Positions 20,195 through 58,498 of a stretch of 64,000 nt of DNA are shown one piece after another. The stretch comes from Pyropia yezoensis (Eukaryota > Rhodophyta > Bangiophyceae > Bangiales > Bangiaceae). Where the stretch lies: positions 12,645,420 to 12,709,419 of the forward strand of contig CM020620.1 in assembly GCA_009829735.1 (NCBI GenBank), in the 5' to 3' direction. The translations under genes were made by a program, and so were the position numbers. The notes under the pieces were generated by a model. That model searched no databases and was not told the DNA's origin. It saw only the letters and a program-made list of their open reading frames with translations. Each line of letters begins with the position of its first letter. Position 1 is the stretch's first letter.

Positions 20195-20830
20195 TGTGGC
20201 GTTCTAGCCTTTGGGGACAGGCGGGTCCTCGGTGAGGTGACTTGGGACCCGGCCGGCAGTGGTACGTGGAACCCTACGCTGGCCGGGGATCCTTGGCCAC
20301 GTGGCCCGGTGTTGTGGCGACACACCCGGAGCCCTGATTGGCCCACCCGACTGGAGGACTCGCCCGGGTTGTGGGCTTGGTGACCCCTTTGTGGTGTACT
20401 TGATTTTCGTATTTGTTTTCCTTGCGTGATTTCGTGTCTTTCCCCTTTTTTCCCACTGGGTTTTTTCTGGGGATTGACATTTGTGTGTGGGGAGATTTTC
20501 GCTTGCTTTTCGATAGTTGGCCCGGTGAGTGGCCGATGCCTTGCTGGCATTAGGCCCGCCGGGGGGGCGCCCTCTGGGGGCCCCGCTCTGGGCCCCTGGA
20601 GGGGCCAGGGGGGGAGGTTCTTGAGGGTAGCTCCGGGGTCTCCCCGGGGCCATCTTGTAAAATCAACAGTGCTTTGGGTTCTTGCTCCCTCGGGCTTTTG
20701 TCCTTGTTACCTTTACCTCTGACGGGGTGGGCGAGTGGACCACGCTTGGGCTCTTACCTGTTCCTTCCTGGCAAGTCTGTGGTTTCCTAGGTGTGGTGGT
20801 TGTGGGGTCCGATAGGGCCATAACGTTACA
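20195..20830 (+). repeat. Element A 5' LTR
   Basis: 636 bp from TGTGGCG to GTTACA. Equal in length to the 3' LTR (53281-53916) and differing at six positions, all substitutions. Preceded by target duplication CGGCG. Confidence 0.93.
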
Positions 20831-22705: not shown

Positions 22706-25700
22706 GCCATCGGCCAGACAGTACATGCTCGTTTGCTTCTGCTTTGGGCTTCTCGAAGATCTTTCAGGGCCCTTTTGTACCCGTATCTACTTTGCCTACT
22801 AAGAAATCGATTGAACCCTCTTCATGCTCCCCTCATCTGACACGAAGGGCCAAGTCATGGCTCCAACGTCGCCTGGGCACGAGGAAACCGTATGGATTCA
22901 AGGGAACACTGCTCGTCCTGCGTAAGAAAAACTTTGCCGTGGACACTCGGATCCGGTTGGACCAGGAAGACTCAAGAGAGACGACAGCGATCCTGGACAC
23001 CGGGGCGGGGCCAAGTGTGGTCCGCGAGGACGTCCTGCCGGAGGGATGGCGGGAGGTGTCGTCCAGGGCCCCAAAGAGTACCCACGTTTGTGATGCGTCG
23101 GGCCAGTTGCTCAAGGCCCGTGGAATCGTGGAGCTGACCGTTATCGTGAATGACAAGGCCATGGCGTTCGAGTTTTTGGTCGTCAAGGCCCTTCCGGTCC
23201 CGCTGATCCTGGGGATGGACTACCAGAAGGCCCACGTCAAGGCCATTTATCCTGGGACAGAGTCGGTCCTTTGGAACAATGGGACCCTGTCGTACGCCAA
23301 GCGTGCGTGGTCAGGCAAGGACCAGGAGGCCCTACCCGTTAAGGGGAACCCGGTCCGCTTTGACCCGAGCGCTCTGTATCTGTCCAAGGGAGTGACGCTG
23401 GCCCCTCAGTCGGTCCAGGCGGTCTACGTTCGCTGCGGGACCAATGGACGGTGCCTTCTGTACGAGAGGCCCCACAAGTTGGCCAGGAAGGGCTTGCGGC
23501 TACATAATGCCTTGGCCACTATCAAGAACCGACGGGACTTCCGACTCTACTTGACCAACATTTCCAAGAGGCCAGTCAATCTTCCTAAGAACTTTGCTGT
23601 TGGGCTAGCGATCTTTTACGATGGCCCTGCGCACGAGGTTCCCTTGGGGGAATTGTCTCTGACCAGTGAGGGTGCCAACACCGTGGCAACCCTGGGTCAA
23701 GACCAAGGGACCACGTCGCGTGCAGCGCAGCCAGCGGATTCGATGGATACTGAGGGTCCACCTGGAAACACTTCCCGACCCGCGGACCGGACCAGTACGG
23801 TCGCTGCTGACCAGACCCCTATGCCTAGAGTTGCCTTTGAGCTGATCCCCCCGGCCCTACATGAAGCGGTCCGGGACCTGATGGACCAATACAAGGGACT
23901 CTGGGATGGTCAGTTGGGCCAGATGGATATCACGCCGCACCGTATTACGTTGACCGAAGGGGCCAAGCCTATAAGACCCCAACCGTACCGCACTGGCCTG
24001 CATCACCGGGACTTGATCAAGGAACAGGTGGCCAAGCAATCGGCCCTTGGAGTCATTGAGCCCTCACAGGCGGAGTGGTCCTTCCCCGTCGTACTGGTCC
24101 CGAAGTCCGATGGGACCCCAAGATTCAGCGTGGACTACAGACGGCTCAATGATATCACGGTGAAGGACACGTACCCACTGCCCAGGATGGACGATTGCAT
24201 CGACTTCCTGGGTGAGGCCACTGTTTTTTCTATGCTGGACGCTAAAGCGGGCTACTGGCAGATCCCTGTGGCCCTTGAGGACCAGGATAAGACCACGTTT
24301 ACCTGTCACGAAGGGACCTTCAAGTACGTACGACTCCCTTTTGGCTTGACGAATGCTCCCGCTACGTTCCAAAGGGCCATTGATATGATCCTATCCGGGG
24401 TCAAGTGGAAGACCTGTCTCGTGTACCTTGATGATATCATTGTGTTCTCTATGACCCCTGAGGAACACTTGGTCCATCTAGAGGAGACTTTTCAGCTGCT
24501 GACCAAGGCAGGCGTGTCCCTCAAGGCCAGCAAGTGCTTTCTGTTCCACGACAAGGTCGAGTATCTGGGCCACGTTGTCGGCAAGGGCCAACTGAGAGTG
24601 AAGAAGAAGAACCTTGTGGGCCTGTGGCAAGCCAAGACCCCAAGGACCAAGAAGGACCTGCGCAGTTTCTTGGGCATGTGCAACGTGTACCGCAGGTTCG
24701 TCAAGGACTACGCTAAGGTGGCCCGTCCTCTTCTGGCCATGACGAGTAGTAAGGTCCCTGACCCTCTGCCCCCGTTCACTCCGGCCCAGATAGACTCGTT
24801 TGAGGAGCTCAAGTACCGACTGACCCACACTCCCATCCTGACCCTACCGAGACGCACAGGCCAGTACATTGTTGATACCGATGATAGCGCGGCCCACATT
24901 GGATGCGTCGTGCCACAGGAACAGGAGGACCGAGCCTACAGGCCCGTTGGATTCTGGAGTAGAGTACTGACGAGTGCGGAACAGAACAACAGTACCACTG
25001 AACGGGAATGCTTGGCCGTTGTATGGGCCCTTTTTCTTTTGAGACCGAACCTTCAAGGGACCCGATTCATTGTCCGGACGGACCACACGGCTCTGAAATG
25101 GATCCTCCATATGGACGGGGCCCATGGACGCTTGGCCCGTTGGCGCCTACGACTCGCTGAGCTCAACTATACCGTGGCGTCCAGGCCGGGCCAGGACCAC
25201 CACGCAGCAGACGTGATGTCCCGTTTGGCCACGACCGGAGCCGACGACAGGCCCATACCGGATGAGATCCCGTCGCAGCTCACGCTGGCCAACTTCGCGA
25301 CAGGTTGGACCCGACCGAACCTCAAGACTAGCAAGAGGTACCCGCCCCTTTCGGTCCAGAGGATCATCCAGGGCCAAGCAATGGACCCGTGGTGCAAGGA
25401 GATCCGAGCGGAGATGAACCGGAACCCCAAGTCTCGCTTCGGAGAGACGCCTGACGGTCTACCGGTCCGCCTGGCCCCTCTGGATCGCGCAGTCCAGATT
25501 ATTGTTCCCAAGCCCCTACAGAAGGAAGTGCTTACGCTGGAACACGAGCCGGGACACGCGGGCCATCCAGGGGTCAACAAGATGTACACGTCCATGAGGC
25601 GGAGCCTTTATTGGGACACTATGGTGGCCGACGTGGCCTCTTTCGTTTCCAACTGTCCCTCATGTGCCAAGGACAAGGTTCAGGGCCGGCGTAGGACCAA

Positions 25701-26925
25701 CTTGTTGCGCCTTTTTCCGGCCACTGATCCCTTTACGGACGTCTGTTTGGACCTACTTGGACCCCTCCCTGAGACAGCTAACGGGAACGAATATCTTTTG
25801 GTCATCGTTGACAGGTTCACTAAGCTGACCCGGGTGGTCCCGATCCCGAACCAAGACGCAGAGACTGTGGTCTCGGCGTTTCTGGATACATGGGTCGCAT
25901 CTTATGGGCCACCTGATACCTTACTGACCGACAACGGGCCCCAGTTGACCTCAGTTCATTTCCGTGGAGTCGTTGGGATGCTTGGGATCCGGCATGTTAC
26001 CTCGACCACCTATCACCCCCAGACGCAGGGCCAGGTTGAACGGTACAACAGGACCATTGTGGCCCAGCTTCGGACCTACATCGAGGACCACCAGGACCGA
26101 TGGAACGAGTTGGTGTCAGTCTTGACCGTGGCGTACAACACGAGACCCCAGCAGAGCACAGGTGTGGCCCTGTTTGAGTTTGTAACCCCAGAGAGGGTCC
26201 GCACGTTTGCACTAGACCGGCTGCCCGAGTCCCCATGTCCCAAGAAGTTTGAGGGGACAGCGAGAAAGATCCGAGAACAGAGACGGGCCCACTTACGTGA
26301 CTTGGCCTTCACGGTCCGCAAGAACCTCGAGATGGCCCAGCGAAGGTACAAGAAGAGTTATGATAGACGGGTCAATACGGTCAATCAGGCCCTAAGAGCC
26401 TGAGATTGGGTCTACGTGGACACTCATGCCAAGGACCGCAAGAAGCTGGACCAGAAAGTCGAAGGCCCCTACCGGATCCTCAAGAGGGACAGTCACACGT
26501 TCACTGTCCTAGCCAAGGGCTACCCGGACCGTATTAGCAGTGATCACGTGGCCCGCGCCCCGACCCCTGCAGGCCAGTTTGATTGCTCGACTATGATACA
26601 TGGCCCGCAAGAGCCAGTAGTGCCTTTGGACCACGATGACACTGGTCTTTCGTTCGTGTGGGAACGTTTTGTGGGCCACGACCGGGGCCAGGATGGCAAC
26701 CTTTGGCTACTGGTCCGGTGGTGGGGCTACACATCTGATGAGGACACTTGGGAACCGCGGCACAAGTTCGACAGGGCCAAGGTGACTCAGTACTGCCTAC
26801 GGGTTGGGACAGAGCCCCCTATGCAAGAGGAACAGGCATTGGCCCTGCTGGAACCCTTCAAGGCCATCTATTCCGTGTGGCCCTGGTGCCTCGAACCTGG
26901 TGCAGATCTATGGGCCAGAGCTTGA
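22676..26925 (+). CDS. Element A pol: protease, reverse transcriptase, RNase H, integrase, chromodomain
   Basis: Replication polyprotein of a chromovirus. In the frame that is -1 to gag and has no ATG before the protease, so synthesis as a gag-pol fusion is likely. Counting from 22744: protease DTGAG at about 85, RT YLDD 561-564, RNase H with TERECLAVVWAL, integrase zinc finger ending CPSC about 971-974, integrase D1003, D1063 and E1099 (D35E spacing). One in-frame TGA at 26401-26403 falls where relatives have the G of the GDWVYV motif; the frame then continues through a chromodomain (about 26650-26800, LLVRWWGY..DEDTWEP) to the stop at 26923-26925. The TGA is also in the second assembled copy, so it is real or pre-dates the duplication. 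Otherwise intact. Confidence 0.88.
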
Positions 26926-36353: not shown

Positions 36354-36853
36354 NNNNNNNNNNNNNNNNNNNNNNNNNNNNNNNNNNNNNNNNNNNNNNN
36401 NNNNNNNNNNNNNNNNNNNNNNNNNNNNNNNNNNNNNNNNNNNNNNNNNNNNNNNNNNNNNNNNNNNNNNNNNNNNNNNNNNNNNNNNNNNNNNNNNNNN
36501 NNNNNNNNNNNNNNNNNNNNNNNNNNNNNNNNNNNNNNNNNNNNNNNNNNNNNNNNNNNNNNNNNNNNNNNNNNNNNNNNNNNNNNNNNNNNNNNNNNNN
36601 NNNNNNNNNNNNNNNNNNNNNNNNNNNNNNNNNNNNNNNNNNNNNNNNNNNNNNNNNNNNNNNNNNNNNNNNNNNNNNNNNNNNNNNNNNNNNNNNNNNN
36701 NNNNNNNNNNNNNNNNNNNNNNNNNNNNNNNNNNNNNNNNNNNNNNNNNNNNNNNNNNNNNNNNNNNNNNNNNNNNNNNNNNNNNNNNNNNNNNNNNNNN
36801 NNNNNNNNNNNNNNNNNNNNNNNNNNNNNNNNNNNNNNNNNNNNNNNNNNNNN
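36354..36853. other. Assembly gap, 500 N
   Basis: Exactly 500 Ns, a conventional scaffold placeholder. The sequence to its left (23440-36353) equals the sequence to its right (36854-49759), so the true gap size is probably negative. Confidence 0.98.
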
Positions 36854-40983: not shown

Positions 40984-41521
40984 TGTGGGAGATTGGGCCG
41001 GAATTCGGTACCAATACTTTGGAGATTCGGGTCAAGTGGACCTGCCCGTAAGTCGAAATTCACCCGACCCACGATGGTGAAACTTCTGACTTCTGGACGG
41101 AAATTCGACTAGGACTTCCGACATACTAGAGCAGGGTAATGCTGCTGGTATTTGTTTCTTGGGATTTTTGCACGGGAGCCAGACGGATTTCTACGCTTGA
41201 GTGCTTTGCATGTGGAGTGATATGTTTGGTTTGTTTGAGGGTTCATTTTCTGAGTGTTTTGAGGGGTTGCGTGAGCGTGTGAGGAGGGTTGATAAGGAGG
41301 GACAGCAAGGCGGGGAGGGCCCACCTTGGCTGGCCAAGCAAGTAAACACCGTCTGGCTCCGACACATCTTGTTCGTGCCTTGGTGAGCTAACCCGTTCAC
41401 CACACGCAAGTTCCGTGTTCGGCTGTGTGGAGGTGCATTCTTCCGGTTTCCCAAGTCGGGATATCGGCAATACTCCTCTTCCTTTCCGTACTCGGGGTCG
41501 GTGGTTGGGAGTACTGCTACA
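40984..41521 (+). repeat. Element B 5' LTR
   Basis: 538 bp from TGTGGGAG to GCTACA. Matches 50704-51241 with 11 substitutions and no length change. Confidence 0.92.
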
Positions 41522-41523
41522 GT

Positions 41524-41539: not shown

Positions 41540-41838
41540 GAGAGGATATCGACTGTGGTACCTCCCTTGACCGGAGACGGGACCTAGTTGGCCCCTCTCC
41601 CCCTTCGGCAGCGAGACTTCCGGTGACAGGATCGACTCGCCTACGTTCCGAGCGTTCGCTGGGTGACGAGGTTGGCCACCGTGAGTCTTGGTGGGAGACC
41701 CGGAGTTTCGGGAAACCTCACCGCCTTCCTTGAGGCAGGTGGAGGGGTGACACGTGCTCTAGGAACTCCCTAGCTGACGATCCCCGACTCTGGACACCGT
41801 TTGGTCGTTTTGGTTGACTCCACGTGACTCTTGTGGAG

Positions 41839-43602
41839 ATGGCTGGTGAGGGAGACCCCCCCATTGCGCCGAGTGTACCTGGGGAGGGGGAGCGTAGTCC
41901 TCCCCCGACGGGCGGAGTACCACCCAGGCCGGGCAGTGCGGATGTGGTGGGTCCAGAGGTTGGACCCCGACGGCGGTCGGCCAGGTTCCTTCCCAGGCCG
42001 TCCCCGGAAGAGACGGGCGGAGTTCGCCCTTCTCCGGTGGGAGCGCCGAGCCAGCGTCAGGCTCCGGCAACCTCTTCGGGGAGTGACGACACTCACTTCG
42101 GCATGGGACCGCCGACCGGCAGAGGTGACGGGACGGGGAGTTCCGTACCCCGGGTTGGTGGGTCCGCGCCACGACTGGTGCCGGAAGGACCGGGTGGGAG
42201 CTCGAGTCAAGCTCCACCTGGGTCATCCGGTGTCGTGGATGACTCGGTGATGACTGCCATCGCACAAGTCGTGCGAGAGGAGGTGGGGAAGGCGTTGAAG
42301 GGGAACACCCCTCCGCCTGAGCAGGCCTCGAGGCGTCAGATGCGACGGGAGATTCGACGTACTCTCCGTCGTGAGGTGGACTCAGAGTCGGAGTCCTCTG
42401 CAAGTGGCAAGTCGGGTGAAGAGGATCTTACCCGACGTGGTAGTGTGACTCACAGGGACCGTCTTGGGACTAGAGTCGTCCCAGAAAAGATAGTAATCAA
42501 TAATCCATTGTTCAAGGATGTCTTCGACTGTGAGACATACGGGTTGGTCAACAAGTCGTTGACCTACTCGAATAGTCAGGCCCGTACCCTGGGCCGGCGC
42601 AAGAAACACGTTGCGCGATCGTTCGGGGTCCGTTCAGAATGGGACGGGACACCACCCCTGAAGGTCTTCCAGTTTTTGCGGAAGTTCGCAAAAGCCTGCG
42701 ATGACAATGATGTCTCTGAAGCTGAAGCGTTTTTCATGCTTCAGGACTTCACAAAGGAGCCACTCCGCTCCGAGGTGATGATCGTCATGCCAAGTCGGCA
42801 TGGTGGGAACCCGGGTGAGGTGACCTCCTACCTGGAGTTGGTTAATTGGATCCTTCGTCTTCACGCAGACGAGGCTTCCTTGGCTGTGCAGGTTGAAGAG
42901 TTCAACCGCGCCACCCAGAGTAAGAGTGAGGAGGAACGGGAGTTCGCTGAACGACTCCGTCAGCTGAACGCCCTCTGTGGATTCCTATATCCCCAAGGAG
43001 TCATTAAGGGACGCTTTTTGGAGGGTGTCCACCGAGCAGCTCGAGCGACTGTGCGAGAGCGTAATACTCCGACCATGACTCTGGCGGAGTTGGCACGCAT
43101 CGCCCAGACTCAGGGTGATGAGTACCGCTGGCTCGTGTCTGAGCAGCGGAAGGAACGAGAGAAGGAAGCTAAGGGAGTGGAAGCAAGTCGCTTCCGCAGA
43201 ACTCCAAGGGTGCCTTCCTACACGCGGACGTACCCCGCAGTACCTTCGTCCTCAACTCGAGAGACGGAAGGCATGGTGGCCGCTATCCCTGATAAGTCAC
43301 AGGGAAAAGCGGGGCCATCGGCGTCAATGAGTGATCGGCCGTGTTGGCAGTGTTCCAAGTCGGGACACTGGGCAGCCCAATGCCCCACTCTGGACGTTCG
43401 ACTGAGAGCCCTGTTGGCTCGTATCGGGAAGCTCGGTATTCCGAGGACTGATTCGGATACCCGGCCGCGCACCACATGGGTGACGGCCATGACTCAACCT
43501 AAGTCAGAGGATGAGTCCACGCTAGAGACGGGGGAAGCCGTCTCCCCCAGCTCAAGTGGCAAGGATGCTCCATCATCCGAGTCGGATGAGGGAAACGCCT
43601 AG
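41839..43602 (+). CDS. Element B gag
   Basis: Second assembled copy of the 587-residue gag (ATG at 41839, TAG at 43600-43602). Capsid-like core, and a zinc knuckle CWQCSKSGHWAAQC that would bind the element RNA. Open throughout, followed by pro in the -1 frame. Confidence 0.9.
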   Translation: MAGEGDPPIAPSVPGEGERSPPPTGGVPPRPGSADVVGPEVGPRRRSARFLPRPSPEETGGVRPSPVGAPSQRQAPATSSGSDDTHFGMGPPTGRGDGTGSSVPRVGGSAPRLVPEGPGGSSSQAPPGSSGVVDDSVMTAIAQVVREEVGKALKGNTPPPEQASRRQMRREIRRTLRREVDSESESSASGKSGEEDLTRRGSVTHRDRLGTRVVPEKIVINNPLFKDVFDCETYGLVNKSLTYSNSQARTLGRRKKHVARSFGVRSEWDGTPPLKVFQFLRKFAKACDDNDVSEAEAFFMLQDFTKEPLRSEVMIVMPSRHGGNPGEVTSYLELVNWILRLHADEASLAVQVEEFNRATQSKSEEEREFAERLRQLNALCGFLYPQGVIKGRFLEGVHRAARATVRERNTPTMTLAELARIAQTQGDEYRWLVSEQRKEREKEAKGVEASRFRRTPRVPSYTRTYPAVPSSSTRETEGMVAAIPDKSQGKAGPSASMSDRPCWQCSKSGHWAAQCPTLDVRLRALLARIGKLGIPRTDSDTRPRTTWVTAMTQPKSEDESTLETGEAVSPSSSGKDAPSSESDEGNA

Positions 43603-43638: not shown

Positions 43639-44381
43639 TAATGAAGCGGGTTGCTTCACACTCACCGACCCATGGGAGAGTGAAGGTCCTGACTCGACCT
43701 CGAGGGGTGAGGCCTAGAGACAAGGTCCCTCCTCAGAAGCACGACCCGAGTCGGATTGTGTCAGTGCTGGTAGGGAGTAACTACCACGTCGCAGCTCGAC
43801 TCTGGCTGCAGGATGGATATGAGTTTACCTCTCGTGTCATAGTCGACACAGGCTCTGCTACCTCTCTCATTAGGCAAGACTTATTGCCAGAGGGGACGGA
43901 TGTGAGTCCCGCCGGCTCACCCGAGTGGCGTATGTTTGATGTCAATGGGGGACTCCTCCCCATTGTTGGGTCTATTGCATTGACTGTTTGCATTGGGTTC
44001 TACCAGACGCAGGTGAACTTTGGAGTAGTCTCCATTATGTCAGTCCCCGTACTTCTGGGAACTGACTATCTGGACCTCCATGTCCCGGCCGTCTGTGGAC
44101 CGGAAGGGATAATCCGAATGCGTAATGGAGAGACTGTCACCATATTGCGTAAAGGGAGGACTGTTTCCCCCACGACTCATCAACCTAGGGAAAACTCTCC
44201 CAAGGGTGGAGGCTCTACGACCCATGTACGAGTATGTAAGGGTACGGTAGTCCCGCCCCGATCAAGGACCTTTGTGCGAGTACGCACACGGTTTCGAGGG
44301 AATGGACTCGTTTCCCCCGTGGACCGAGTCTATTATTCTCACCAAGTGCAAGTTGCATGGGGCCCCATGACTTGTGGGTGA
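43597..44381 (+). CDS. Element B aspartic protease
   Basis: Retropepsin-like protease that would process gag-pol. Catalytic VDTGSATS, then VLLGTDYLDLH, the usual second conserved block (hydrophobic-hydrophobic-G-x-D). Continuous in the -1 frame from the gag slippery site. An in-frame ATG exists at 43641, so it might also be started there. The frame ends at TGA 44379-44381, just where RT-domain relatives continue; the next domain follows in the +1 frame (TGT GGG TGA). One extra G in the GGG run would explain this; a programmed +1 shift is possible but less likely given the other breaks downstream. Confidence 0.8.
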
Positions 44382-46050
44382 TGACCAAACTTGGTGGGTG
44401 GAGGTCCTCAACACGTCGGAGGAACCTCGACGACTCCCCGGAGGCATGAAGATTGCGTCGATCTCTACCATTGAGGGGAATGTCGTTGCTGTGACTCAAC
44501 AGCAATGGAAGGATATTGGAACGGCAGGCTCTGCCGACCAATCGAGTTCATCGACGGCTACGTCGCCGACGGTACATCGGGAGAACATCCCGGAGTGTTT
44601 ACATGGACGACTGGATGAGTTAATCCAGAAGCATCACAAGTTGTGGAATGGTGACCTTGGGCTCATCAAGGCCACCGAACACAGAATCGTGTTGAAGCCA
44701 GGGGCTAGGCCAGTTCGCCTGAGTCCCTACCGTATGGGACCAGACTCACGGAAACTCACCCGAGAGCAGGTCCAACGGATGCGAGACATGGGTGTCATTG
44801 AGCCTTGCTCAAGTGAGTGGGCCAGTCCCATAGTCTTGGTGCCCAAGTCAGACGGCACGATGCGGTTCTGCATCGATTATCGTAAGCTAAACGAGCGGAC
44901 GGTAAGGGATAGTTACCCCTTACCCCGTATGGACGATTGCCTCGACTCACTCGGTGAGGCACAGTACTTTTCCACGTTGGACTGCAACGCGGGGTACTGG
45001 CAGATACCCATCCGCAAGGAGGACAGACACTTGACCACCTTAACGTGTCACTGTGGAGTTTATCAGTGTACACGGCTCCCTTTCGGGCTTTGCAATGCAC
45101 CTGCGACTTTCCAGCGTGCTATTGACTTGATACTTGCCGGAGTCAAGTGGCAGATCGCCCTAGTGTATCTGGACGATATCATTGTGTTCTCCGGGACTGC
45201 CGAAGAACACCTGTCCCACTTGGACAGAGTGTTTACCCTGTTGGGTGAAGCAGGAGTAACACTCAAACCTACGAAGTGTCACCTCTTTAGTAATGAGGTG
45301 GAGTACCTCGGCCATATAGTCCGGCCAGGTCGCATTCTGGTCTATGAGAAGAACCTCATGGCCATCCGTCGGGCGAAGTTCCCCCAGACGCAGACACAAC
45401 TCAGGAGCTTCATGGGTATGTGTAACGTATACAGACGCTTTGTGGCGAACTATGCCAAAGTGTCTGCACCGTCGAATCACTTGGTAAGTTCCAAGATGCC
45501 CAAGCGCTTGGATGCTCCCAAACCCCCGGAGCAAAAAGCGTTTGATAGGTTGCGAGAACTCCTCTGCAACCCACCGGTGTTAGCGATCCCCAGACCGGGG
45601 GCTCACTACATTGTTGATGTGGACGCAAGTCACGACCAACTTGGTTGTTGCTTACTCCAACAACAGCCTCCGGGGGAGTATTTACCCGTTGGCTATTTTA
45701 GCAAAGGACTCTCACCGGCCCAGAAGAACTATTCTGTGACGGAGGTAGAGGGCCTTGGCGTAGTATGGGCAGTCTCCATGGTACGGCCATACGTCGAAGG
45801 AAGGAAGTTCCTCATTCGATGTGACCACAAGGCTCTGAAGTGGATATTCACCACTACAGCCTGTACAAATTACCGACTCAATCGATGGCGACTCTGCCTC
45901 GCTGAGTTCGATTATGACGTTGAGTATCGGCCAGGCCCGAAGCATGCGGTTGCGGACGCGTTGTCTCGCATACCGACGGATGGGAAAGACTCTTCCCCCA
46001 TCCCTGAGACTCTTTCCCCATCCCTAAGGAACTCCCTCATGTGGCAGTGA
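44374..46050 (+). CDS. Element B reverse transcriptase and RNase H
   Basis: Copies element RNA into DNA. RT motifs FCIDYRKLNERTVRDSYPLP, LPFGLCNAPATFQRAID and VYLDD (residues 265-268 from 44374), connection domain, then RNase H with VDVDASHDQLGCCLLQ, a catalytic Glu in TEVEGLGVVWAV, and DALSRIPT. No ATG at the start; the frame is entered from protease. It stops at 46048-46050 because a 20-bp tandem duplication (GACTCTT...CCATCCCT, two units at about 45988-46027) shifts the frame: the second unit leads into the integrase frame when read in the other phase. Confidence 0.88.
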   Translation: MGDDQTWWVEVLNTSEEPRRLPGGMKIASISTIEGNVVAVTQQQWKDIGTAGSADQSSSSTATSPTVHRENIPECLHGRLDELIQKHHKLWNGDLGLIKATEHRIVLKPGARPVRLSPYRMGPDSRKLTREQVQRMRDMGVIEPCSSEWASPIVLVPKSDGTMRFCIDYRKLNERTVRDSYPLPRMDDCLDSLGEAQYFSTLDCNAGYWQIPIRKEDRHLTTLTCHCGVYQCTRLPFGLCNAPATFQRAIDLILAGVKWQIALVYLDDIIVFSGTAEEHLSHLDRVFTLLGEAGVTLKPTKCHLFSNEVEYLGHIVRPGRILVYEKNLMAIRRAKFPQTQTQLRSFMGMCNVYRRFVANYAKVSAPSNHLVSSKMPKRLDAPKPPEQKAFDRLRELLCNPPVLAIPRPGAHYIVDVDASHDQLGCCLLQQQPPGEYLPVGYFSKGLSPAQKNYSVTEVEGLGVVWAVSMVRPYVEGRKFLIRCDHKALKWIFTTTACTNYRLNRWRLCLAEFDYDVEYRPGPKHAVADALSRIPTDGKDSSPIPETLSPSLRNSLMWQ

Positions 46051-46465
46051 CCACTCGCTCCGGAACTGTCCTCGACCCGAGGATGCCTGGCATGGCCAAG
46101 CTATTACCCGTGTCTCTGGATGAGTTTGTCCAGGCACAGGAGAGCGACAAACTTTGTCGACGACTCAGGAAGGAGCTCGACCAGGCTTAACCGACTCGGT
46201 TCTTCCTGAATGACAACGGCATACTCTGCCGTAAGGGATATACCCAGAGGGACAAGCAAGTCGTCGTCCCCAAGGAGTTACGCAAGAGTATCCTCCAACG
46301 GGAGCACTCCTCACCGTTGGGTGGACACCCAGGGTCTACGAGGATGTATCAGACCCTACGAAAGAAGTACTATTGGCCATCACTCGTGGCTGATGTGTAC
46401 GGGTATGTAGCCGCATGCGCGACTTGCGCAAAGAATAGACTCATGGAGTCCCGGCAGAGTTCTTT
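46041..46465 (+). pseudogene. Element B integrase zinc-finger region (nonsense and frameshift)
   Basis: Linker and N-terminal HHCC finger of integrase (HSSPLGGHPGSTRMY, CATC) in a frame different from both neighbours. It has a TAA after ELDQA (about 46188-46190), consistent with CAA to TAA. At its right end two extra bases (46464-46466 region) separate it from the catalytic core. Same state in the other assembled copy. Confidence 0.7.
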
Positions 46466-47650
46466 ATGAGACTCTTTCCTGCAACAGAGCCGTTCGCAGC
46501 GATAGCAGTGGACTTACTCGGTCCACTACCACGAACACCTGAAGGATATGAGTACCTTCTGGTGATGTGTGATCGCTTTACTAAGCTCACACGGGTATCC
46601 CCACTCAAGGATATTACAGCCGTGGACGTTCTGAGTGAGTTACTCGACGTCTGGGTTGCCAGTTATGGCATCCCCGACTCTATCCTTTCGGATAACGGAC
46701 CACAGTTTGCGTCCGTCCTGTATCAGGGAGTCATGAAGATGTTGGGGGTGCAGTCGAATTTCGCAACCCCTTACCACCCCAAGACTAATGGGCACGTGGA
46801 ACGATTCAACAGGACTCTAGTGTGCCAGTTGCGTCACTATGTCCATGACCATGTAGTCACATGGGCTCGTTATGCGTCACTACTCGTGACAGCATACAAC
46901 TCCCAGGTGCAGAGTAGTACGGGAGAGGCACCGTTTGCCTTCGTCTGCCCCCGACGACTTCCGTCAGTAGCTGTGGAGCGTCTCACCCAGACAGAGGGTG
47001 AGACTTCGACTCAAACACCGAGTCAGGCGAAAGCCTCCCTACTCCAGAGACTGGAGGAGATAATACCCCTTGTCCGGGCTACTATGGAGAAGGCCCAAGC
47101 TCGTTACAAGAGGTACTTCGATGTCCGAGTCAGATATCGTCGCGATCCGCTCCGAGTTGGAGATTGGATTTATGTCAACTCCCACGACAATAAGGGAGGG
47201 AAATTGGTCTTTAAAACTCTTGGACCATATCACATCCTTAAGACGGATGGACGGCGGTTAACCATCGAGAGTGATGATGGTATCCGGACGATAAATGGGA
47301 ATCACGCGACTCGCGCACCCGAACCTCCAGAGGGAGATCCCGCTCGGGAAAGGGCCTTGCAAGCATGGAAAGTCCCATCCTTGCCGACCTCCTCCAATAA
47401 ACCGTTGGAGGCGGTGCTCGACAAGTTTGTCGGACACAGATACGATGAGTCGGGGCGACTCATGCTCCGAGTCAGGTGGTTCGGGTATGGACCAACTTCC
47501 GACACATGGGGGTTTGTAGAGGACCTACCAGTAGAGAAGGTCCGTAGATACTGCCAGGCTGCGGGCATATCTATTCGCCGACGTAGAACTCGTACGTCGC
47601 GGGATGAAGTCCCTGCTCAAAGTCAGAGCAGAGCGGCAAGCCAACCATGA
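46466..47650 (+). CDS. Element B integrase core and chromodomain
   Basis: Inserts element DNA into the genome. Catalytic triad in VDLLGP, SDNGPQ and HVERFNR, then a GDWIYV module and a C-terminal chromodomain (LRVRWFGYGPTSDTWG) expected to steer integration to modified chromatin. Open from ATG 46466 to the stop at 47648-47650, but originally part of the pol polyprotein, so the ATG is probably not a real start. Its GGA at the GDW motif shows what the TGA in element A replaced. Confidence 0.85.
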   Translation: MRLFPATEPFAAIAVDLLGPLPRTPEGYEYLLVMCDRFTKLTRVSPLKDITAVDVLSELLDVWVASYGIPDSILSDNGPQFASVLYQGVMKMLGVQSNFATPYHPKTNGHVERFNRTLVCQLRHYVHDHVVTWARYASLLVTAYNSQVQSSTGEAPFAFVCPRRLPSVAVERLTQTEGETSTQTPSQAKASLLQRLEEIIPLVRATMEKAQARYKRYFDVRVRYRRDPLRVGDWIYVNSHDNKGGKLVFKTLGPYHILKTDGRRLTIESDDGIRTINGNHATRAPEPPEGDPARERALQAWKVPSLPTSSNKPLEAVLDKFVGHRYDESGRLMLRVRWFGYGPTSDTWGFVEDLPVEKVRRYCQAAGISIRRRRTRTSRDEVPAQSQSRAASQP

Positions 47651-47778: not shown

Positions 47779-49695
47779 CTAGCGTTCCATATGCCCACCC
47801 CCACCACTATAGGGACCGCCCGACCACGAACCCCCAGGTTCGTAGGCCGGTAGCGGAGGGGCGTAACCCACTCGGGAGGGCCCCGGAGTGGAAGCACTGG
47901 GAGGGGCCCGCCGACTCGCGGACCCATCCCCGTCGTAAGAAAGATGTCCGGAGGTACTCCCTCCGTGACGCGGAAGCTGCTGCTGAGTCGGCAGCAGCCG
48001 TTGGACAAACTCGTGTCCAACCGCGAGGCGAGTGACCTCAGCTGCCAATGACTGTCGCGCCGTGGCTGAGTCGCCCGACGCGAGGAAGTGGCTGACACGC
48101 CGGGTGACCCAAGCCAACGTGTCAAGGGAGGCCACGAGTGAGGCCTCCACCGTGGCGTCATACATGATGGCTCCCAAGTTGGGAAGCATCTCGCCGACGC
48201 CACGCGCAATCGGCATCGGGACCGGAGTTCGGACCCGTAGCGAACCCAACGCCACGTCGGGGAAGGGTTCGAGGAACTGGAAGGGTGGAGCCTGAATCGG
48301 CTCCACCCCCCCCGAGGTCGGAGTCGCGACCCGCGGGGAAGACGTCGGCACAGCTCGCGCGCGGCTTCGAGGGGCTCCTCGATGAGCACCACGACGAGTC
48401 GTCGCCGATGACGTCGCCCACCCAGAGCCAGGGGGCGACGAAGAGGGAGTAACCCCCTCCGCGTAGGGAAGGGAAGGGTCCCCCAACCCCTCACACAGGA
48501 GCAGATGCCCCTGCACCAGAGTATGGGTGACATGGACGAACTCCCGGGTTGGCTCACTCTCCAACCCCGGCTCTGAACGCTTGTGGCGGCGGAGGAAGGG
48601 GTCCAGCTGCGCCCAATCGAGTCGATTGTGCAGGGTGACCATACCCTTGAGGAGGAACGGAGGCAGGTCCCCCGCGCCCAAGGCTAACCAGTGGAAGCCA
48701 AGGGTTTCCGTACCCTCCACCAGAGCCGGTGGGAGGTGCCACAGGTAACCCCGATGGACTACATCGGAGTACCAGCCCCGAGCCACCACGACCACCCAGT
48801 GCGTGGCGGGGTAGGCGAAGACCCGGTTGCCCTCCGAGCTGGAGCGTAGCACGGAGCCAAAGTAGGCAACGAGGAGGGGGATCCGAGCCGGAAACCCACA
48901 AGGTACCTCCACTGTCTCCCACCACCCTGGGAGAAGAGGGTACTGGTGCTCACGCTCCTCCAGAGGTACGTGGGTGAACTCCACCCGCGACCCGTGGATG
49001 AGGAAGCCCGAGGAGCCCCGGAGTCGGAACTCCTCTCGCACCACACCGTGTTGGGCGTGGGCGTCCTCTCCGCCCAGGTAGGGACGAGGAAGGGCACACC
49101 ACTCGGTAGCCACCACCGCGTGGGTGTCGTCGATCTCCACGTCGCCCGATTCCATGGCGAGGGAGGTTGACAACGCCTGGACTTCAGGCGCGTCCGCCAG
49201 GCAGAGTAGCGCTGGTAGGTCGCAGACCACCCCATCAGGTAGAGTCACCTGGTTGGGGTACCGACGAGTCCGGCGGTACCATACGTCGGTCCGCCGTGGC
49301 TCGGGGATGATCAAGTAGACATCCTTGAGCTTGCAGTCGGGAAGCTCCCCGACTGACTTGCGAGGCGCCCAGGCTCGGGGCCCCATAGGAGGACGGGGCC
49401 GCGGCGGGAGTAGCAGCCGCGACTCAGGAAGGCGGGGGATGGGAGTCACATCCCCTTCCGCCACCGGGTTGGAAGACCAATCCCCCGGTGGGACCACAGC
49501 CGAGGGGGCAGTAGGAGGTGATGGAGCGGGGACGGCTGAGGCGGCCGCCTCCGACCCTCGCCCGGGACGAGACGTCTCCATGGCCGACCCCCGGCTGAGA
49601 GACTCCTCAGTCCCGAGGGCCTCCTCTCCCGCCCGTCGCTTGTCCGACAGAGACGTCGGAGACGGGGACAAGGGCCGACTCGGCTCACCCGCCAT
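47779..49695 (-). CDS. Element B antisense ORF, conserved unknown protein
   Basis: 638 codons on the strand opposite to gag-pol, starting at ATG 49695 in a good context (AAGATGG) and ending 128 bp from the end of pol. Ser/Pro-rich N-terminus (about 120 residues), then a globular-looking middle with many aromatic residues, then a low-complexity region (about 440-500), then a helical-looking C-terminal part with LVASLDTLAWVTRR. No signal peptide, membrane segment or known domain seen. The middle block LPGWWETVEVPCGFPARIP lines up with VPHWFKGVDITFGSVVALP in the antisense ORF of element A, followed in both by a YF...LR stretch. Two different families keeping a long antisense frame in the same place argues for a real accessory protein. 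Function unknown. Confidence 0.7.
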   Translation of the reverse strand: MAGEPSRPLSPSPTSLSDKRRAGEEALGTEESLSRGSAMETSRPGRGSEAAASAVPAPSPPTAPSAVVPPGDWSSNPVAEGDVTPIPRLPESRLLLPPRPRPPMGPRAWAPRKSVGELPDCKLKDVYLIIPEPRRTDVWYRRTRRYPNQVTLPDGVVCDLPALLCLADAPEVQALSTSLAMESGDVEIDDTHAVVATEWCALPRPYLGGEDAHAQHGVVREEFRLRGSSGFLIHGSRVEFTHVPLEEREHQYPLLPGWWETVEVPCGFPARIPLLVAYFGSVLRSSSEGNRVFAYPATHWVVVVARGWYSDVVHRGYLWHLPPALVEGTETLGFHWLALGAGDLPPFLLKGMVTLHNRLDWAQLDPFLRRHKRSEPGLESEPTREFVHVTHTLVQGHLLLCEGLGDPSLPYAEGVTPSSSPPGSGWATSSATTRRGAHRGAPRSRARAVPTSSPRVATPTSGGVEPIQAPPFQFLEPFPDVALGSLRVRTPVPMPIARGVGEMLPNLGAIMYDATVEASLVASLDTLAWVTRRVSHFLASGDSATARQSLAAEVTRLAVGHEFVQRLLPTQQQLPRHGGSTSGHLSYDGDGSASRRAPPSASTPGPSRVGYAPPLPAYEPGGSWSGGPYSGGGGHMER

Positions 49696-50690
49696 CTTGA
49701 ATAACCTTGACCAACTCGGTGAGGTTGAGCACGGGGGGGGGATACGACCCGCTCCTCCCCCTTGACCGCCACCAGGTTAACTCAACCTGGGCCTTGAACA
49801 ACAGGGGGTGGACACGACCCACACCCCCCAACGACAACAAAGAAGCCCGACACAAGGGGCAGCGCGGGGAAAACACAACCCCGCCGACGAAGAGCAACAA
49901 AGCGGGGACACAACCCACGCCCCCACCGACAACGAAGACGCCCGACACAGGGGCAGGGAGGGGGAAGACACCACCCCAAGCGGCGACACAAACCGCATGG
50001 CGGGAAGAGACAGACCCGCCGACGCGAGGGAGCAGCGGCGGGAAGACACACACCCGCCCGCACAAACGAAGGGGAGAGAAGACCCCGCACCGGCGGCCGA
50101 GTACCACCGCCGGCGACCGAGTGCAACACCCCCAACTCGGGGTGCGCACACCCCTCAACCCTGACTAGAAGGGGGGGGGAAAGGAGTGAGGAACACCCCG
50201 CAGAGAGCCAGCTGGGGGTGGATCGAGCTCTAAGGGGGGGACACAACCCGACCCCCCGAGAGCAACCGTACCCCAACTGAAGGGGCAGGTGCAGGTCGAC
50301 GTTCCGAGTGAGAACGTCGACGCCCTACTCCTCCAGTTGAGGGGCAGGGGGTGTGGCGGAGGAACGCCGACACCCAGGTTAGGGGGCCCACCCACACGGG
50401 AGTCTACCCGTGGAGCACCCTGACCAGGTGGGGGACGACTTTCCCCTACACCTGTTTCGCGTGGAGGGGGCTCCTCTACCCAGGTTAGGGCAGAGTGCGC
50501 ACCCCACGGAGAGGGACTGCCTCTCCCGGAGGGCCCCGCCGGACGCGAGTGCAACCCCGGCGTAACCCTGGTGCACGCTAGACGCCAGCGATGCACCGTA
50601 CTTTGCATCCCGACTCGGGAATTGCATCCTCCTCTCCCGGTCACTGCGACTCGCAGCTGATTGGACGTCCACCGGGACGGCTGGACTTTT
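49696..50690. repeat. Element B 3' low-complexity leader of the antisense ORF
   Basis: About 1 kb between the antisense start and the polypurine tract. 49790-50160 is an imperfect tandem array (period roughly 60 bp; recurring ACAACCC, GACGCCCGACAC and GGGGAAGACA units) that leaves all minus-strand frames open without real content. The rest is G/C-run DNA. It could hold the promoter for the antisense ORF; no motif supports this directly. Confidence 0.5.
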
Positions 50691-50703
50691 GAGAAGGGGG
50701 AAA
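50691..50703 (+). other. Element B polypurine tract
   Basis: GAGAAGGGGGAAA directly before the 3' LTR, as expected for plus-strand priming. Confidence 0.8.
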
Positions 50704-51241
50704 TGTGGGAGATTGGGCCGGAATTCGGTACCAATACTTTGGAGATTCGGGTCAAGTGGACCTGACCGGAAGTCGAAATTCACCCGACCCACGATGGTGA
50801 AACTTCTGACTTCTGGACGGAAATTCGACTAGGACTTCCGACATACTAGAGCAGGGTAATGCTGCTGGTATTTGTTTCTTGGGATTTTTGCACGGGAGCC
50901 AGACGGATTTCTACGCTTGAGTGCTTTGCATGTGGAGTGATATGATTGGTTTGTTTGAGGGTTCATTTTCTGAGTGTTTTGAGGGGTTGCGTGAGCGTGT
51001 GAGGAGGGTTGATAAGGAGGGACAGCAAGGCGGGGAGGGCCCACCTTGGCTGGCCAAGCAAGTAAACACCGTCTGGCTCCGACACATCTTGTTCGTGCCT
51101 TGGTGAGCTAACCCGTTCACCACACGCAAGTTCCGTGTTCGGCTGTGTGGAGGTGCTTGCTTCCGGTGTCCCAAGTTGGGATATCGGCAATACTCCTCTT
51201 CCTTCCCTGACTCGGGGTTGGTGGTTGGGAGTACTGCTACA
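50704..51241 (+). repeat. Element B 3' LTR
   Basis: 538 bp, TGTGGGAG to GCTACA; 11 substitutions against 40984-41521, most of them in the last 100 bp. Followed by ACCTG, nearly the ACCCG on the other side. Confidence 0.93.
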
Positions 51242-51285
51242 ACCTGGGCCGACTCCAACTGCCCCACGGATCCGCCGATAAGACT

Positions 51286-52599
51286 TCAGAGGGCCAGCGC
51301 GGACAAGGGGGGGAGCTGCCACTCTAGCTCCGCCAGGTCCGAATCCGGGACATCGCCGTGGCCCAGGAGGTTGGCTACAAGAACAGTAGGACCCGACACG
51401 GGAGTCCGGCGACCGCCAGTTGACCCCGACGAGACCCCGAGATGGCGGACGCCCGGGTCTAGGGAGCCAGAATGATCCGCTGGTCCCGCGTCACAGTCCC
51501 CGGCCAGCATCACACGGCTCTCAAGAACATCGGAAGAATACGGAAGGGCCAGCGGGGTCAAGTCCTCATGGACAACTGCTGACCAGACCCCGTCCACCGA
51601 CTCGAAAGAGACCTTGATCCATGTCGAACGGATCCGATCAGGGCCACGCTCACGGAGAAGACGGGCCTCCAGACCGGCGACAGGGGTTACTTGGTCCAGC
51701 AAGTCGAGGAGGGCCTTCAGGTCCCTCGCCGCCGCGGCGACTGGCCCGTCACGGTTCTGGCAGATGAACTCCGGGGTCACACGCCGGATCCACGTGCGCA
51801 AGGTCCGAGAGTAGAGCCAAGCCTTGGCCCCGCACAGGGCCTCGTTGAGCAGGAAGACCCCGGCCGTCACGGCCCATTCGGACTTGAAGACGTTCCACGT
51901 GAACGAATCGTTGGCCCTTAGCATGTCCCGGAAGTAGCAATGGACCACGGGAAGCGCGACCACGGACCCAAACGTAATGTCGACACCCTTGAACCAGTGA
52001 GGGACCCGCACGTAATGAAGGGCCCTGACGCCAACGGGACAGCTAGGGAGCTCTTGCTGGTGGTAGTCCACGAGGAAGCCCATCTTGTCCCGGTGGTGAC
52101 GATTCGTAACCAGGTCCTTGGGGTCCGCCTGGAAGCAGTCGTGGTCCAGGAACGGGGGGGCCGCGAGAACGTATTGGGCCGTGGGTGCCATCGGCATTGG
52201 AGACCCTAACTGTTCCATCTTGGCCCGCACCTCCTTGTACCGGGTCACGTAGCCCACCTCGCCGGAGTGACGGACCACCGTGATCGAGTTGGCCCGGTCG
52301 GCCCTCATCGGGACGCGCGCCTCGGGCAACTTGGCCATCTGCTTACGAAAGGAGTTCCCCACCATGGGCCCGTCAATGGCCCGGAAGGAAGCGTGTGCCG
52401 AGGTCGTCGTGACCCAGCCACGGGCCTGCTCTCGATCCCAAGCTTCGCGGGCCCCGGGCGTGAAGTTCTCCGGGACCATACCGACCACGTCGACGTACAA
52501 CTGGCCTGCGCCTTCTTCCTCTTGACCCGCGGCATGGTCGTCGTGGCCCCTGGTGGGCCCTTGAGTCGAACTGGTCCCGCTGCCCCGGTCGACGTCCAT
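51286..52599 (-). CDS. Element A antisense ORF, conserved unknown protein (N-terminal part)
   Basis: 437 codons opposite to gag-pol, starting at ATG 52599 in the context AAGATGG with an in-frame TAG four codons upstream, so the start is well fixed. No recognised domain. Contains VPHWFKGVDITFGSVVALP and a following YFRDMLRA, matched in position and pattern by the element B antisense protein. The frame ends at TGA 51286-51288 but continues in phase to 51242 and, past the B insertion, at 27577-27290. The original protein was thus about 550 residues, probably closed early by a CGA-to-TGA change and then split by element B. Confidence 0.68.
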   Translation of the reverse strand: MDVDRGSGTSSTQGPTRGHDDHAAGQEEEGAGQLYVDVVGMVPENFTPGAREAWDREQARGWVTTTSAHASFRAIDGPMVGNSFRKQMAKLPEARVPMRADRANSITVVRHSGEVGYVTRYKEVRAKMEQLGSPMPMAPTAQYVLAAPPFLDHDCFQADPKDLVTNRHHRDKMGFLVDYHQQELPSCPVGVRALHYVRVPHWFKGVDITFGSVVALPVVHCYFRDMLRANDSFTWNVFKSEWAVTAGVFLLNEALCGAKAWLYSRTLRTWIRRVTPEFICQNRDGPVAAAARDLKALLDLLDQVTPVAGLEARLLRERGPDRIRSTWIKVSFESVDGVWSAVVHEDLTPLALPYSSDVLESRVMLAGDCDAGPADHSGSLDPGVRHLGVSSGSTGGRRTPVSGPTVLVANLLGHGDVPDSDLAELEWQLPPLSALAL

Positions 52600-53280
52600 C
52601 TTGTCCCGCTACACGGGCCCGTCAGGGCCAACAAGCTTCAGCACCGCGAGGTGGAGGGGAGGAGGAGAAAGTGGTGGACAGGGTGGAGGAGAAGGGGTAC
52701 AAGGAGGAGGAGGACCCAGAGGGAAAGGTGGATCCGCCGGGGCCAGCGTGGACACGAGGAGACAGGTGAGGTGGCCAGGGGAAGAGACGACCACGCTGGA
52801 CCAGAGGGGGTCCGGTCAAGTAGTGACCACCCTCGGTTCTGGCCCGGTCTGTCCCCCCTCTCGCTGGCGCGGCCCCCTGCGTGCCGCCTCTCACCCCCAC
52901 CCCTAACGTGCTGCGTCCTAGGGGCCAGGGGGGGGGGCATACAGGCAGACACCGGGCGGGGGCCACGCCGGCGCACACACCACACCCACGCACACCCCAC
53001 ACACACGCACCCCCTACACCCCTCGCTACTCTCCTGCACCCCGCACAGTACCACTCCCCCTCCCCTCTCTACTCTCCTCCCTCCACGCGTGGTGACCCGG
53101 TCGGACTCCATCTGGCCCTTGCGGACCGCGAGACTGTGCCTCTCTCTGTTCTGGACCATCCATCTGACCCCTACTGGTCGCGTGGGTAGCCGGTGGTATC
53201 TCCACTGGTCCCTCCCCTCGGCCCGCTGACGCATTGGACCGAACTGGCCGGCGGGACGCTCGGCCCTAGTGAGGGGGTTT
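52600..53280. other. Element A 3' low-complexity region with polypurine tract
   Basis: No gene. AG-rich (52650-52800) and CA/CCCAC-rich (52970-53060) stretches upstream of the antisense ORF start, ending in GAGGGGGTTT (53271-53280) right before the 3' LTR, the likely polypurine tract. Confidence 0.5.
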
Positions 53281-53916
53281 TGTGGCGTTCTGGCCTTTGG
53301 GGACAGGCGGGCCCTCGGTGAGGTCACTTGGGACCCGGCCGGCAGTGGTACGTGGAACCCTACGCTGGCCGGGGATCTTTGGCCACGTGGCCCGGTGTTG
53401 TGGCGACACACCCGGAGCCCTGATTGGCCCACCCGACTGGAGGACTCGCCCGGGTTGTGGGCTTGGTGACCCCTTTGTGGTGTACTTGATTTTCGTATTT
53501 GTTTTCCTTGCGTGATTTCGTGTCTTTCCCCTTTTTTCCCACTGGGTTTTTTCTGGGGATTGACATTTGTGTGTGGGGAGATTTTCGCTTGCTTTTTGAT
53601 AGTTGGCCCGGTGAGTGGCCGATGCCTTGCTGGCATTAGGCCCGCCGGGGGGGCGCCCTCTGGGGGCCCCGCTCTGGGCCCCTGGAGGGGCCAGGGGGGG
53701 AGGATCTTGAGGGTAGCTCCGGGGTCTCCCCGGGGCCATCTTGTAAAATCAACAGTGCTTTGGGTTCTTGCTCCCTCGGGCTTTTGTCCTTGTTACCTTT
53801 ACCTCTGACGGGGTGGGCGAGTGGACCACGCTTGGGCTCTTACCTGTTCCTTCCTGGCAAGTCTGTGGTTTCCTAGGTGTGGTGGTTGTGGGGTCCGATA
53901 GGGCCATAACGTTACA
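53281..53916 (+). repeat. Element A 3' LTR
   Basis: 636 bp matching 20195-20830 with six substitutions. Followed by target duplication CGGCG at 53917-53921. Confidence 0.93.
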
Positions 53917-58448: not shown

Positions 58449-58498
58449 AGTTTATTTCGGGAAATCGATAAGGATAACCTCGTCCTGACCGATGAAAG

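What the first reader, a model, noticed from the sequence alone, without database searches (positions are those of the whole stretch)
47779..52599. Two different Ty3/gypsy families share a long antisense ORF encoding an unknown protein
Element B has a 638-codon ORF (47779-49695) and element A a 437-codon ORF (51286-52599, continuing in phase after one TGA to 27290) on the strand opposite to gag-pol, both between the chromodomain end of pol and the 3' LTR. Both begin in AAGATGG. The proteins align in order: VPHWFKGVDITFGSVVALP (A) with LPGWWETVEVPCGFPARIP (B), each followed by a YF...LR stretch, and near the C-terminus VLASLHTLVNVGSR (A) with LVASLDTLAWVTRR (B). The elements are otherwise diverged at DNA level. 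I recognise no domain. Antisense extra ORFs are known in some plant LTR elements, but I know of none in chromoviruses of algae. This is my best candidate for an undescribed system.
Basis: partly seen in the sequence, partly recalled or inferred. Interest (0 to 1): 0.9.

Follow-up and report, generated by a model that had tools for sequence, protein, structure and literature searches.

The report
Antisense gene in seaweed jumping elements
Several families of copy-and-paste jumping DNA in a red seaweed carry the same extra, protein-like gene written backwards next to their standard genes; selection has kept its protein, which resembles no family we could search, but what it does is still unknown.

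Summary
The window is from Pyropia yezoensis (contig sizes match). Two nested Ty3/gypsy elements, A and B, each carry a long ORF between pol and the 3' LTR on the strand opposite gag-pol. The two proteins are homologous (profile-profile E 4e-16, 337 columns). A third family, D (pol 48% identical to A's), has a homologue in the same place (E 9e-18). The frame is under purifying selection: dN/dS 0.23-0.45 in 21 of 23 pairs, against 1.0-2.6 in the other two frames of that strand in 9 pairs. Where pol was matched nearby, the ORF was antisense: 57 A-type pairs, 65 B-type ORF rows, none on the same strand; lists are capped. No Pfam or PDB relative was found, nor the Transposase_28 domain of plant Retand antisense ORFs. 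Three protein searches gave 24 relatives; the one named host is Pyropia vietnamensis. New here: copies without an intact ORF have spread beside intact ones, including at least 10 B copies with one shared 1118-bp deletion. Best reading: an antisense-transcribed accessory gene acting in trans. The layout is known; the protein family seems new.

The parts
47779..49695 (-). aORF_B: 638-codon antisense ORF of element B, between the end of pol and the 3' LTR
   Evidence: 70 rows in the genome (two are pieces of one place), 59 without a stop inside the match
51286..52599 (-). aORF_A 5' part: 437 codons, ended by an in-frame TGA
   Evidence: 7 of 11 other A copies held have 546 codons
27290..27577 (-). 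aORF_A 3' part (C-terminal ~95 codons), separated from the rest by the insertion of element B
   Evidence: translation and empty site
20195..20830 (+). 5' LTR of element A
   Evidence: 99.06% to 53281-53916, TSD CGGCG
53281..53916 (+). 3' LTR of element A; short purine-rich stretch just upstream (by eye); lies upstream of aORF_A on its strand
52600..53280 (-). 681-bp leader between A's 3' LTR and the aORF_A start; candidate antisense promoter/5' UTR (inference)
21287..22672 (+). probable gag region of element A in two frames parted by a stop; CCHC-like stretch by eye
   Evidence: no Pfam match for 21506-22306
22744..26403 (+). pol of element A: protease, RT, RNase H, integrase
   Evidence: Pfam RVP, RVT_1, RT_RNaseH, Integrase_H2C2, rve above cut-off
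26416..26925 (+). chromodomain end of A's pol, in another frame in this copy
   Evidence: Pfam Chromo 26.4 bits, cut-off 25.1
40984..41521 (+). 5' LTR of element B (another assembled copy at 27578-28115)
   Evidence: 97.96% to 50704-51241
41824..43602 (+). gag of element B with zinc knuckle
   Evidence: Pfam zf-CCHC 20.1 bits, cut-off 20.8
43641..47650 (+). RT, RNase H and integrase of element B in three frames in this copy; protease and chromodomain only below cut-off
   Evidence: Chromo 19.1 bits, cut-off 25.1; gag-asp_proteas E 0.14
49696..50703 (-). 1008-bp leader between B's 3' LTR and the aORF_B start; candidate antisense promoter/5' UTR (inference)
50704..51241 (+). 3' LTR of element B
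36354..36853 (.). 500-N scaffold gap between two 12.9-kb, 99.8% identical segments

Best explanation
A group of red-algal Ty3/gypsy elements (family A and relatives, B, D) carries an ancestral accessory gene, antisense to gag-pol, between pol and the 3' LTR. SHOWN: it is one protein family in three deep pol lineages, in the same place and orientation wherever pol was found beside it, under purifying selection, without an obvious transmembrane segment, and lost or truncated in sub-groups of copies that keep pol and have multiplied. INFERRED: because the genomic (sense) RNA holds only the complement, the protein must come from a separate antisense transcript of integrated copies, most likely started in or just beside the 3' LTR. 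The protein then acts in trans, as a regulatory or nuclear accessory factor, on family members including those that lack it. The likeliest roles are keeping LTRs expressed against host silencing or helping the pre-integration complex; the evidence does not separate these.
For: Homology A-B, D to the A+B profile, D-B (E 2.3e-6). Position: 57 A-type pairs and 65 of 74 B-type ORF rows with pol beside them, antisense; none on the same strand. Constraint: dN/dS 0.23-0.45 in 21 of 23 pairs, 1.0-2.6 in the other two frames of the strand (9 pairs), 0.19 in D. Synonymous divergence of ORF and pol is alike between family 27 and L029/L030/L032 (1.02-1.08 and 1.06-1.09); no starred group of one tree contradicts the other. 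Highest 19-residue hydropathy 0.98-1.54 in five proteins. Trans or dispensable: one 1118-bp deletion shared by four fetched B copies, spanned by 10 of 40 scored matches, all 10 beside a pol_B match, 7 of those with a 1346-codon open pol frame; A-type copies without the core share pol and LTR at 95-99% with intact ones of their family. For the analogous maize Grande ORF, antisense transcription and a nuclear protein are published (PMC7264820, sections 5-8 read).
Against: No transcript, protein or localisation data, and no structure. No promoter shown: no TATAAA/TATATA upstream of either ORF on its strand, and the leader is poorly conserved between A and families 27/30 (0.34-0.66 per 100 columns). 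Copies lacking the ORF multiply, which also fits a gene of little use. dN/dS is about four times that of pol in the well-diverged pairs (0.27-0.30 against 0.07-0.08). In pairs with L026 the synonymous divergence of the ORF (1.45, 1.05) is below that of pol (2.26, 1.81), near saturation, so equal histories are shown only for families 27 and 30. Family C, a co-resident chromovirus with 39 further near-identical matches, has no such ORF in the one copy read.
Confidence: 0.6

Rival explanations
1. The antisense transcript, not the protein, is what matters: it pairs with the sense RNA and tunes silencing, and the open frame is incidental.
For: The ORF and pol are convergent, with 128 bp between their stops in B, so read-through would give overlapping RNA. 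Antisense RNA without protein is known in some elements (PMC7264820, section 8).
Against: Amino-acid-level constraint in the ORF frame (dN/dS 0.23-0.45 in 21 of 23 pairs) against 1.0-2.6 in the other two frames of the strand, and protein homology across families with near-saturated synonymous sites. One reverse frame is also low (0.35-0.56) but holds 12-17 stops per sequence.
Confidence: 0.06
2. A captured host gene, a passenger with no role for the element.
For: LTR elements do capture genes (PMC7264820, section 6). 35 of 92 A-type ORF rows had no pol row nearby in the lists and were mostly not examined.
Against: Three deep lineages carry it in the same place and orientation. A host gene of the family was not looked for systematically.
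Confidence: 0.05
3. An envelope-like or capsid-like protein in reverse: an env or a duplicated gag.
For: The interval pol-3' LTR is where env-like ORFs lie (PMC7264820, abstract).
Against: Reverse strand; no 19-residue hydropathy above 1.54 in five proteins; no similarity to B's gag (hhalign probability 0.1%; A's gag not compared).
Confidence: 0.05
4. A distant relative of the plant Transposase_28 (PF04195) antisense ORFs, that is, one ancient family shared by red algae and plants.
For: Same place, same orientation, similar proposed role (PMC11963269, passages seen).
Against: No PF04195 match in the genome at E<=10, none among the ORF proteins scanned. Retand is a non-chromovirus lineage (PMC11963269).
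Confidence: 0.1
5. The ORF had a function in the past and is now decaying, carried along by recent amplification.
For: Deletions and core loss in B and A-type copies; within-family pooled pN/pS of 0.40 (12 B copies) and 0.49 (7 A copies) exceeds most between-family values.
Against: 59 of 70 B rows have no stop in the match; between families dN/dS is 0.23-0.45.
Confidence: 0.14

Closest known systems
[quoted passage not shown]
   Same: Long ORF in that interval, antisense to gag-pol, in most copies of a family, conserved like an element gene, function unknown; for Grande an antisense promoter upstream of the gene and a nuclear protein are reported.
   Different: No Transposase_28 domain here; the other plant proteins were not at hand to compare. 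Hosts are flowering plants. Grande is used as a Retand-lineage, hence non-chromovirus, query in PMC11963269.
Retand antisense ORFs with Transposase_28 domain (PF04195; Vicient 2025, PMC11963269, passages seen)
   Same: Antisense, pol-3' LTR interval; 97% of clusters encode the domain antisense; some elements are non-autonomous.
   Different: PF04195 absent here. Retand intervals are 2.9-6.6 kb; here about 2.7 kb in A (without B) and 3.05 kb in B.
5' aORFs of plant chromoviruses (Tekay; PMC11728184, passages seen)
   Same: Extra protein conserved in most copies of a chromovirus group.
   Different: Those lie at the 5' side of gag-pol; here the gene is at the 3' end and antisense.
Boty antisense ORF of Botrytis (named in PMC7264820)
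   Same: Antisense ORF between pol and 3' LTR outside plants.
   Different: Its sequence was not compared here; whether Boty has a chromodomain was not checked.
HBZ of HTLV-1 (as described in PMC11963269 and PMC7264820)
   Same: Antisense gene of a retroelement; nuclear protein; antisense promoter inside the 3' LTR.
   Different: Analogy of layout only; no sequence comparison made.
VANC anti-silencing proteins of Arabidopsis VANDAL elements (PMC5735166, PMC10398659; search listing only)
   Same: An element-encoded protein that counteracts silencing of its own family: the kind of role proposed here.
   Different: A different element class (recalled: DNA transposons); no sequence relation tested.

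Membership tests
Ty3/gypsy LTR retrotransposon | LTRs with target-site duplication | tested here: met
   A: 99.06% LTRs, TSD CGGCG; B: 97.96% LTRs, TSD ACCCG/ACCTG with empty site
Ty3/gypsy LTR retrotransposon | pol order RT-RNase H-integrase | tested here: met
   (A in one frame, B in separate frames)
chromovirus | chromodomain at the C-terminus of integrase, element A | tested here: met
   26.4 bits against a cut-off of 25.1: marginal
chromovirus | chromodomain at the C-terminus of integrase, families B and D | tested here: inconclusive
   B 19.1 bits, under the cut-off; D no Chromo match at E<=1; both match the chromodomain end of A's pol by tblastn at 32-42%. Co-resident family C passes clearly, 56.2 bits
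aORF-3R (antisense ORF between pol and 3' LTR) | ORF antisense to gag-pol in that interval | tested here: met
   the 3' LTR itself was located for A, B and A-type loci, not for D
aORF-3R (antisense ORF between pol and 3' LTR) | present in most copies of a family | tested here: inconclusive
   ORF row beside 64 of 105 pol_B rows and 57 of 127 A-type pol rows; lists capped
aORF-3R (antisense ORF between pol and 3' LTR) | protein-level conservation | tested here: met
   dN/dS below 0.55 in 22 of 23 pairs
aORF-3R (antisense ORF between pol and 3' LTR) | antisense transcription | not testable with these tools
   no strand-specific RNA held
Transposase_28 / Retand ORF | PF04195 domain | tested here: not met
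   0 matches in the genome at E<=10; none among 18 aligned members at E<=1 or in D
env-like ORF | sense orientation and transmembrane segment | tested here: not met
   antisense; maximum 19-residue hydropathy 0.98-1.54 in five proteins; no dedicated predictor was run
gag duplicate | similarity to the element's gag | tested here: not met
   hhalign probability 0.1% against B's gag; A's gag not compared
trans-acting anti-silencing factor (VANC-like role) | restores expression of silenced copies in trans | not testable with these tools
   needs an experiment

The most novel reading that the evidence does not exclude
A previously undescribed protein superfamily, with at least three deep clades, is an antisense accessory gene of red-algal Ty3/gypsy elements. 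It acts in trans, and a long-lasting split between copies with and without the gene (producer and free-rider copies), kept up by recombination inside each family, makes it work like a public-good regulator or anti-silencing factor of retrotransposons.
Probability: 0.35. Interest if true: 0.8.

Novelty: new variant of a known kind. Interest (0 to 1): 0.6.

Why it matters
Antisense accessory genes of LTR retrotransposons have no settled function; the cases named in the review seen here are plant elements and one fungal element (PMC7264820). A protein family without detectable relatives, in the same place in a red alga, suggests that the layout arose more than once or is older than thought, and so is useful to the element. 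This alga offers near-identical copies with and without the gene, in at least two families of one 107-Mb genome. That makes 'is it needed in cis or in trans?' directly testable.

Tried and rejected
L028 as a recombinant joining family 27's LTR and ORF to a foreign pol: rejected; 1 of 40 scored DNA matches (itself) spans the junction, so it is a nested insertion of family C. L031 as founder of ORF-only elements: rejected; 1 of 40 matches (itself) spans its junction; it is a single internal-deletion copy, with a 5-bp duplication seen. Shared AAGATGG start: not a family feature. ORF as a gag copy: no likeness to B's gag. Domains: Pfam gave only chance-level matches (best E 0.017-0.086), PHROGs nothing for four proteins, PDB sequences nothing but one E 0.31 match. 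IMG/VR contigs with P0008: 9 pattern matches, no relative. A count of D-family copies did not complete; D's ORF rests on two copies.

Limits: genome match lists are cut by the tool, so absence from them is weak and copy numbers are lower bounds; the three protein searches scored only 8000 candidates each. One search used 127 of the 144 rows (17 rows at 48-49% left out) and 92 ORF rows (those without 7 second fragments, plus one). The six A-type loci and the six B-type loci were picked because no ORF row lay nearby, so their share of deletions is not a frequency. Copies are related, so neighbour counts are not independent. dN/dS is pairwise Nei-Gojobori; deep pairs are near saturation. Close pol pairs gave 0.12-0.27 and one 1.21 on 95 codons. 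Of the loci held, the trees used 11 rows (ORF pieces for L025 and L036); L022, L024, L028, L031, L034, L035 and near-identical copies were left out. The deletion sizes and open-frame counts were recomputed.


Full report
WHERE. The window is part of contig C3 of a 107.5-Mb genome. Its three large contigs (43.59, 34.33, 29.39 Mb) match the three scaffolds published for Pyropia yezoensis (43.6, 34.3, 29.4 Mb; PMC7423979, passages seen). The same passages give 48% repeats, LTR retrotransposons predominant.

ANATOMY. Element A spans 20195-53916: LTRs 99.06% identical, CGGCG on both sides, gag and pol on the plus strand, a chromodomain just above Pfam's cut-off. Element B is nested in it, between 27578 and 51241, inside A's antisense ORF; an A copy without B (L014) shows the uninterrupted site.

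HOMOLOGY. A against B: BLASTP 1e-6 for the pair; 1 of 1000 full and 0 of 1000 local shuffles reach the alignment score; 45 A-clade/B-clade pairs score 82-207, reversed A-clade proteins at most 66. In the genome, A-type rows run from 100% (the window itself) to 36% identity (98 rows). B-type rows number 70, 59 without stops; one search added four places. Two copies of another family, D (integrase 48% identical to A's), carry a 705-codon antisense ORF that matches the A+B profile with probability 99.0%, E 8.8e-18, 326 columns. Three searches of 5.8 billion proteins returned 12, 7 and 7 proteins (two of the last repeated, so 24 in all). The only named organism among them is Pyropia vietnamensis (hypothetical proteins); the rest are unnamed assemblies, EukProt and JGI entries. 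Each search scored only the 8000 candidates sharing most words.

PLACE AND ORIENTATION. Among 127 A-type integrase rows and 92 A-type ORF rows, 57 pairs lie within 5 kb with the ORF antisense on the 3' side of pol, 1.5-3.0 kb apart by start coordinates; no ORF row lies on the same strand within 5 kb. For B, 65 of 74 ORF rows have a pol_B row so placed, none on the same strand.

SELECTION. Pairwise dN/dS in the ORF frame is 0.23-0.45 in 21 of 23 pairs; the others are 0.54 and 1.17 (L001-L010, dS 0.015). Read in the other two frames of that strand, nine pairs give 1.0-2.6; of the reverse frames, one gives 0.35-0.56 but holds 12-17 stops per sequence. D gives 0.19. Pol gives 0.07-0.10 in the five pairs with dS above 1. 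Synonymous divergence of ORF and pol is alike between L027 and L029/L030/L032 (1.02-1.08 and 1.06-1.09), but in two pairs with L026 the ORF's is lower (1.45 and 1.05 against 2.26 and 1.81), near saturation. No starred group of either tree contradicts the other (11 rows each). The ORF is therefore a protein gene of long standing, evolving about four times faster than pol.

LOSS AND COEXISTENCE. Six A-type copies chosen because no ORF row lay nearby were fetched. Five keep some 60-78 of the ORF's first codons, the LTR and pol, but have 807-874 bp of other DNA in place of the core; the sixth (L037) shows no ORF match. The five belong to two families with pol 82% identical: 'family 30' (with L029, L030, L032, L033) and 'family 27' (with L027). 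In family 30, copies with and without the core fall among each other in a pol tree (local supports 0.71-0.92); in family 27 the two copies without the core group together beside L027 (0.65). About 570 bp of the replacing DNA is shared between the families at 82%. This fits an old two-form state re-mixed by recombination; two independent replacements by related DNA are not excluded. In B, four of six chosen copies share one 1118-bp deletion that shifts the frame after residue 259; the other two have different deletions. A junction search finds 10 of 40 scored matches spanning it, all 10 next to a pol_B row, seven of these in a 1346-codon open frame. Such copies have spread without an intact ORF.

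A CO-RESIDENT CONTRAST. Family C, found nested in L028, has a clear chromodomain (56.2 bits) and 39 further matches at 98-99%. In the one copy read, its pol stop is followed at once by a purine tract and, by eye, the LTR, leaving no room for such an ORF. A clear chromodomain thus goes with absence of the ORF in C, and a weak or undetected one with its presence in A, B and D.

LTR. One 100-column stretch of the LTR is 94-96% identical between A and L026, L027 and L030, and 99% between L027 and L030, although synonymous divergence between these families is about 1 or more; neighbouring stretches are less alike. Constraint and exchange were not told apart.

HOW IT MAY WORK. The genomic RNA is sense, so the ORF can be read only from a separate antisense RNA made from integrated DNA. 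The 3' LTR lies directly upstream of the ORF, so it or the leader is the likely promoter; this is inference, with CCAAT boxes but no TATA-like motif found. Low hydropathy and no likeness to B's gag speak against Env or Gag. Spread of copies without the ORF, together with constraint on it, fits a factor shared in trans, as suggested for Grande-type ORFs (PMC7264820) and reported for VANC proteins (search listing only).

KNOWN OR NEW. Antisense ORFs in this interval are known (PMC7264820: abstract and sections 5-8 read; PMC11963269: passages). Plant chromoviruses are described with 5' extra ORFs (PMC11728184, passages). A 2012 survey found no retrotransposon chromodomain in red algae with the data then held (PMC3350952, passages). 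The rows listed by five searches of an open-licence library (20 of 310, 20 of 154, 14 of 14, 10 of 18 and 12 of 256) named no such ORF in red algae by title or abstract start; the rest of those lists was not seen, and subscription papers are mostly not held.

Noticed in passing
window 23440-36353 and 36854-49759, gap 36354-36853: Near-identical 12.9-kb segments on both sides of a 500-N gap, differing almost only by indels: probably one locus assembled twice.
   Followed up: yes
L014, L026, L027, L030, L034 LTRs (aORF orientation): One stretch of the LTR is 94-99% identical across families with synonymous divergence of about 1 or more; it holds GC-rich palindrome-like stretches, and a CCAATCAG box elsewhere in the LTR is conserved.
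   Followed up: partly
L038-L042, between pol stop and the aORF remnant: About 0.8-0.9 kb of unrelated DNA replaces the ORF core in two families; in L040 an open, basic frame continues through it.
   Followed up: partly
L031 (G000:C3:9294597-9299895): A 4.5-kb LTR element with leader, start of gag and a broken aORF but no pol, with a CGCCG duplication; single copy by junction search.
   Followed up: yes
L028 from about position 3248: Family C, a high-copy chromovirus without antisense ORF in this copy, nested in a family-27 element.
   Followed up: partly
A, B, D and C pol C-termini: Chromodomain strong in C (56 bits), marginal in A, below cut-off in B, undetected in D: it weakens in the families that carry the antisense ORF (four families only).
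   Followed up: partly
window 9311-11009, 15022-16721, 56761-58452: A 1.7-kb repeat, 98-99% identical, in three copies, one inverted.
   Followed up: no
window LTRs of A and B: B lies inside A yet its LTRs differ more (2.0% against 0.9%); small numbers, or gene conversion.
   Followed up: no
window 47-3544 and 62614-63492: A DEAD/DEAH-type helicase gene by Pfam, and a further Ty3-like gag ORF.
   Followed up: no
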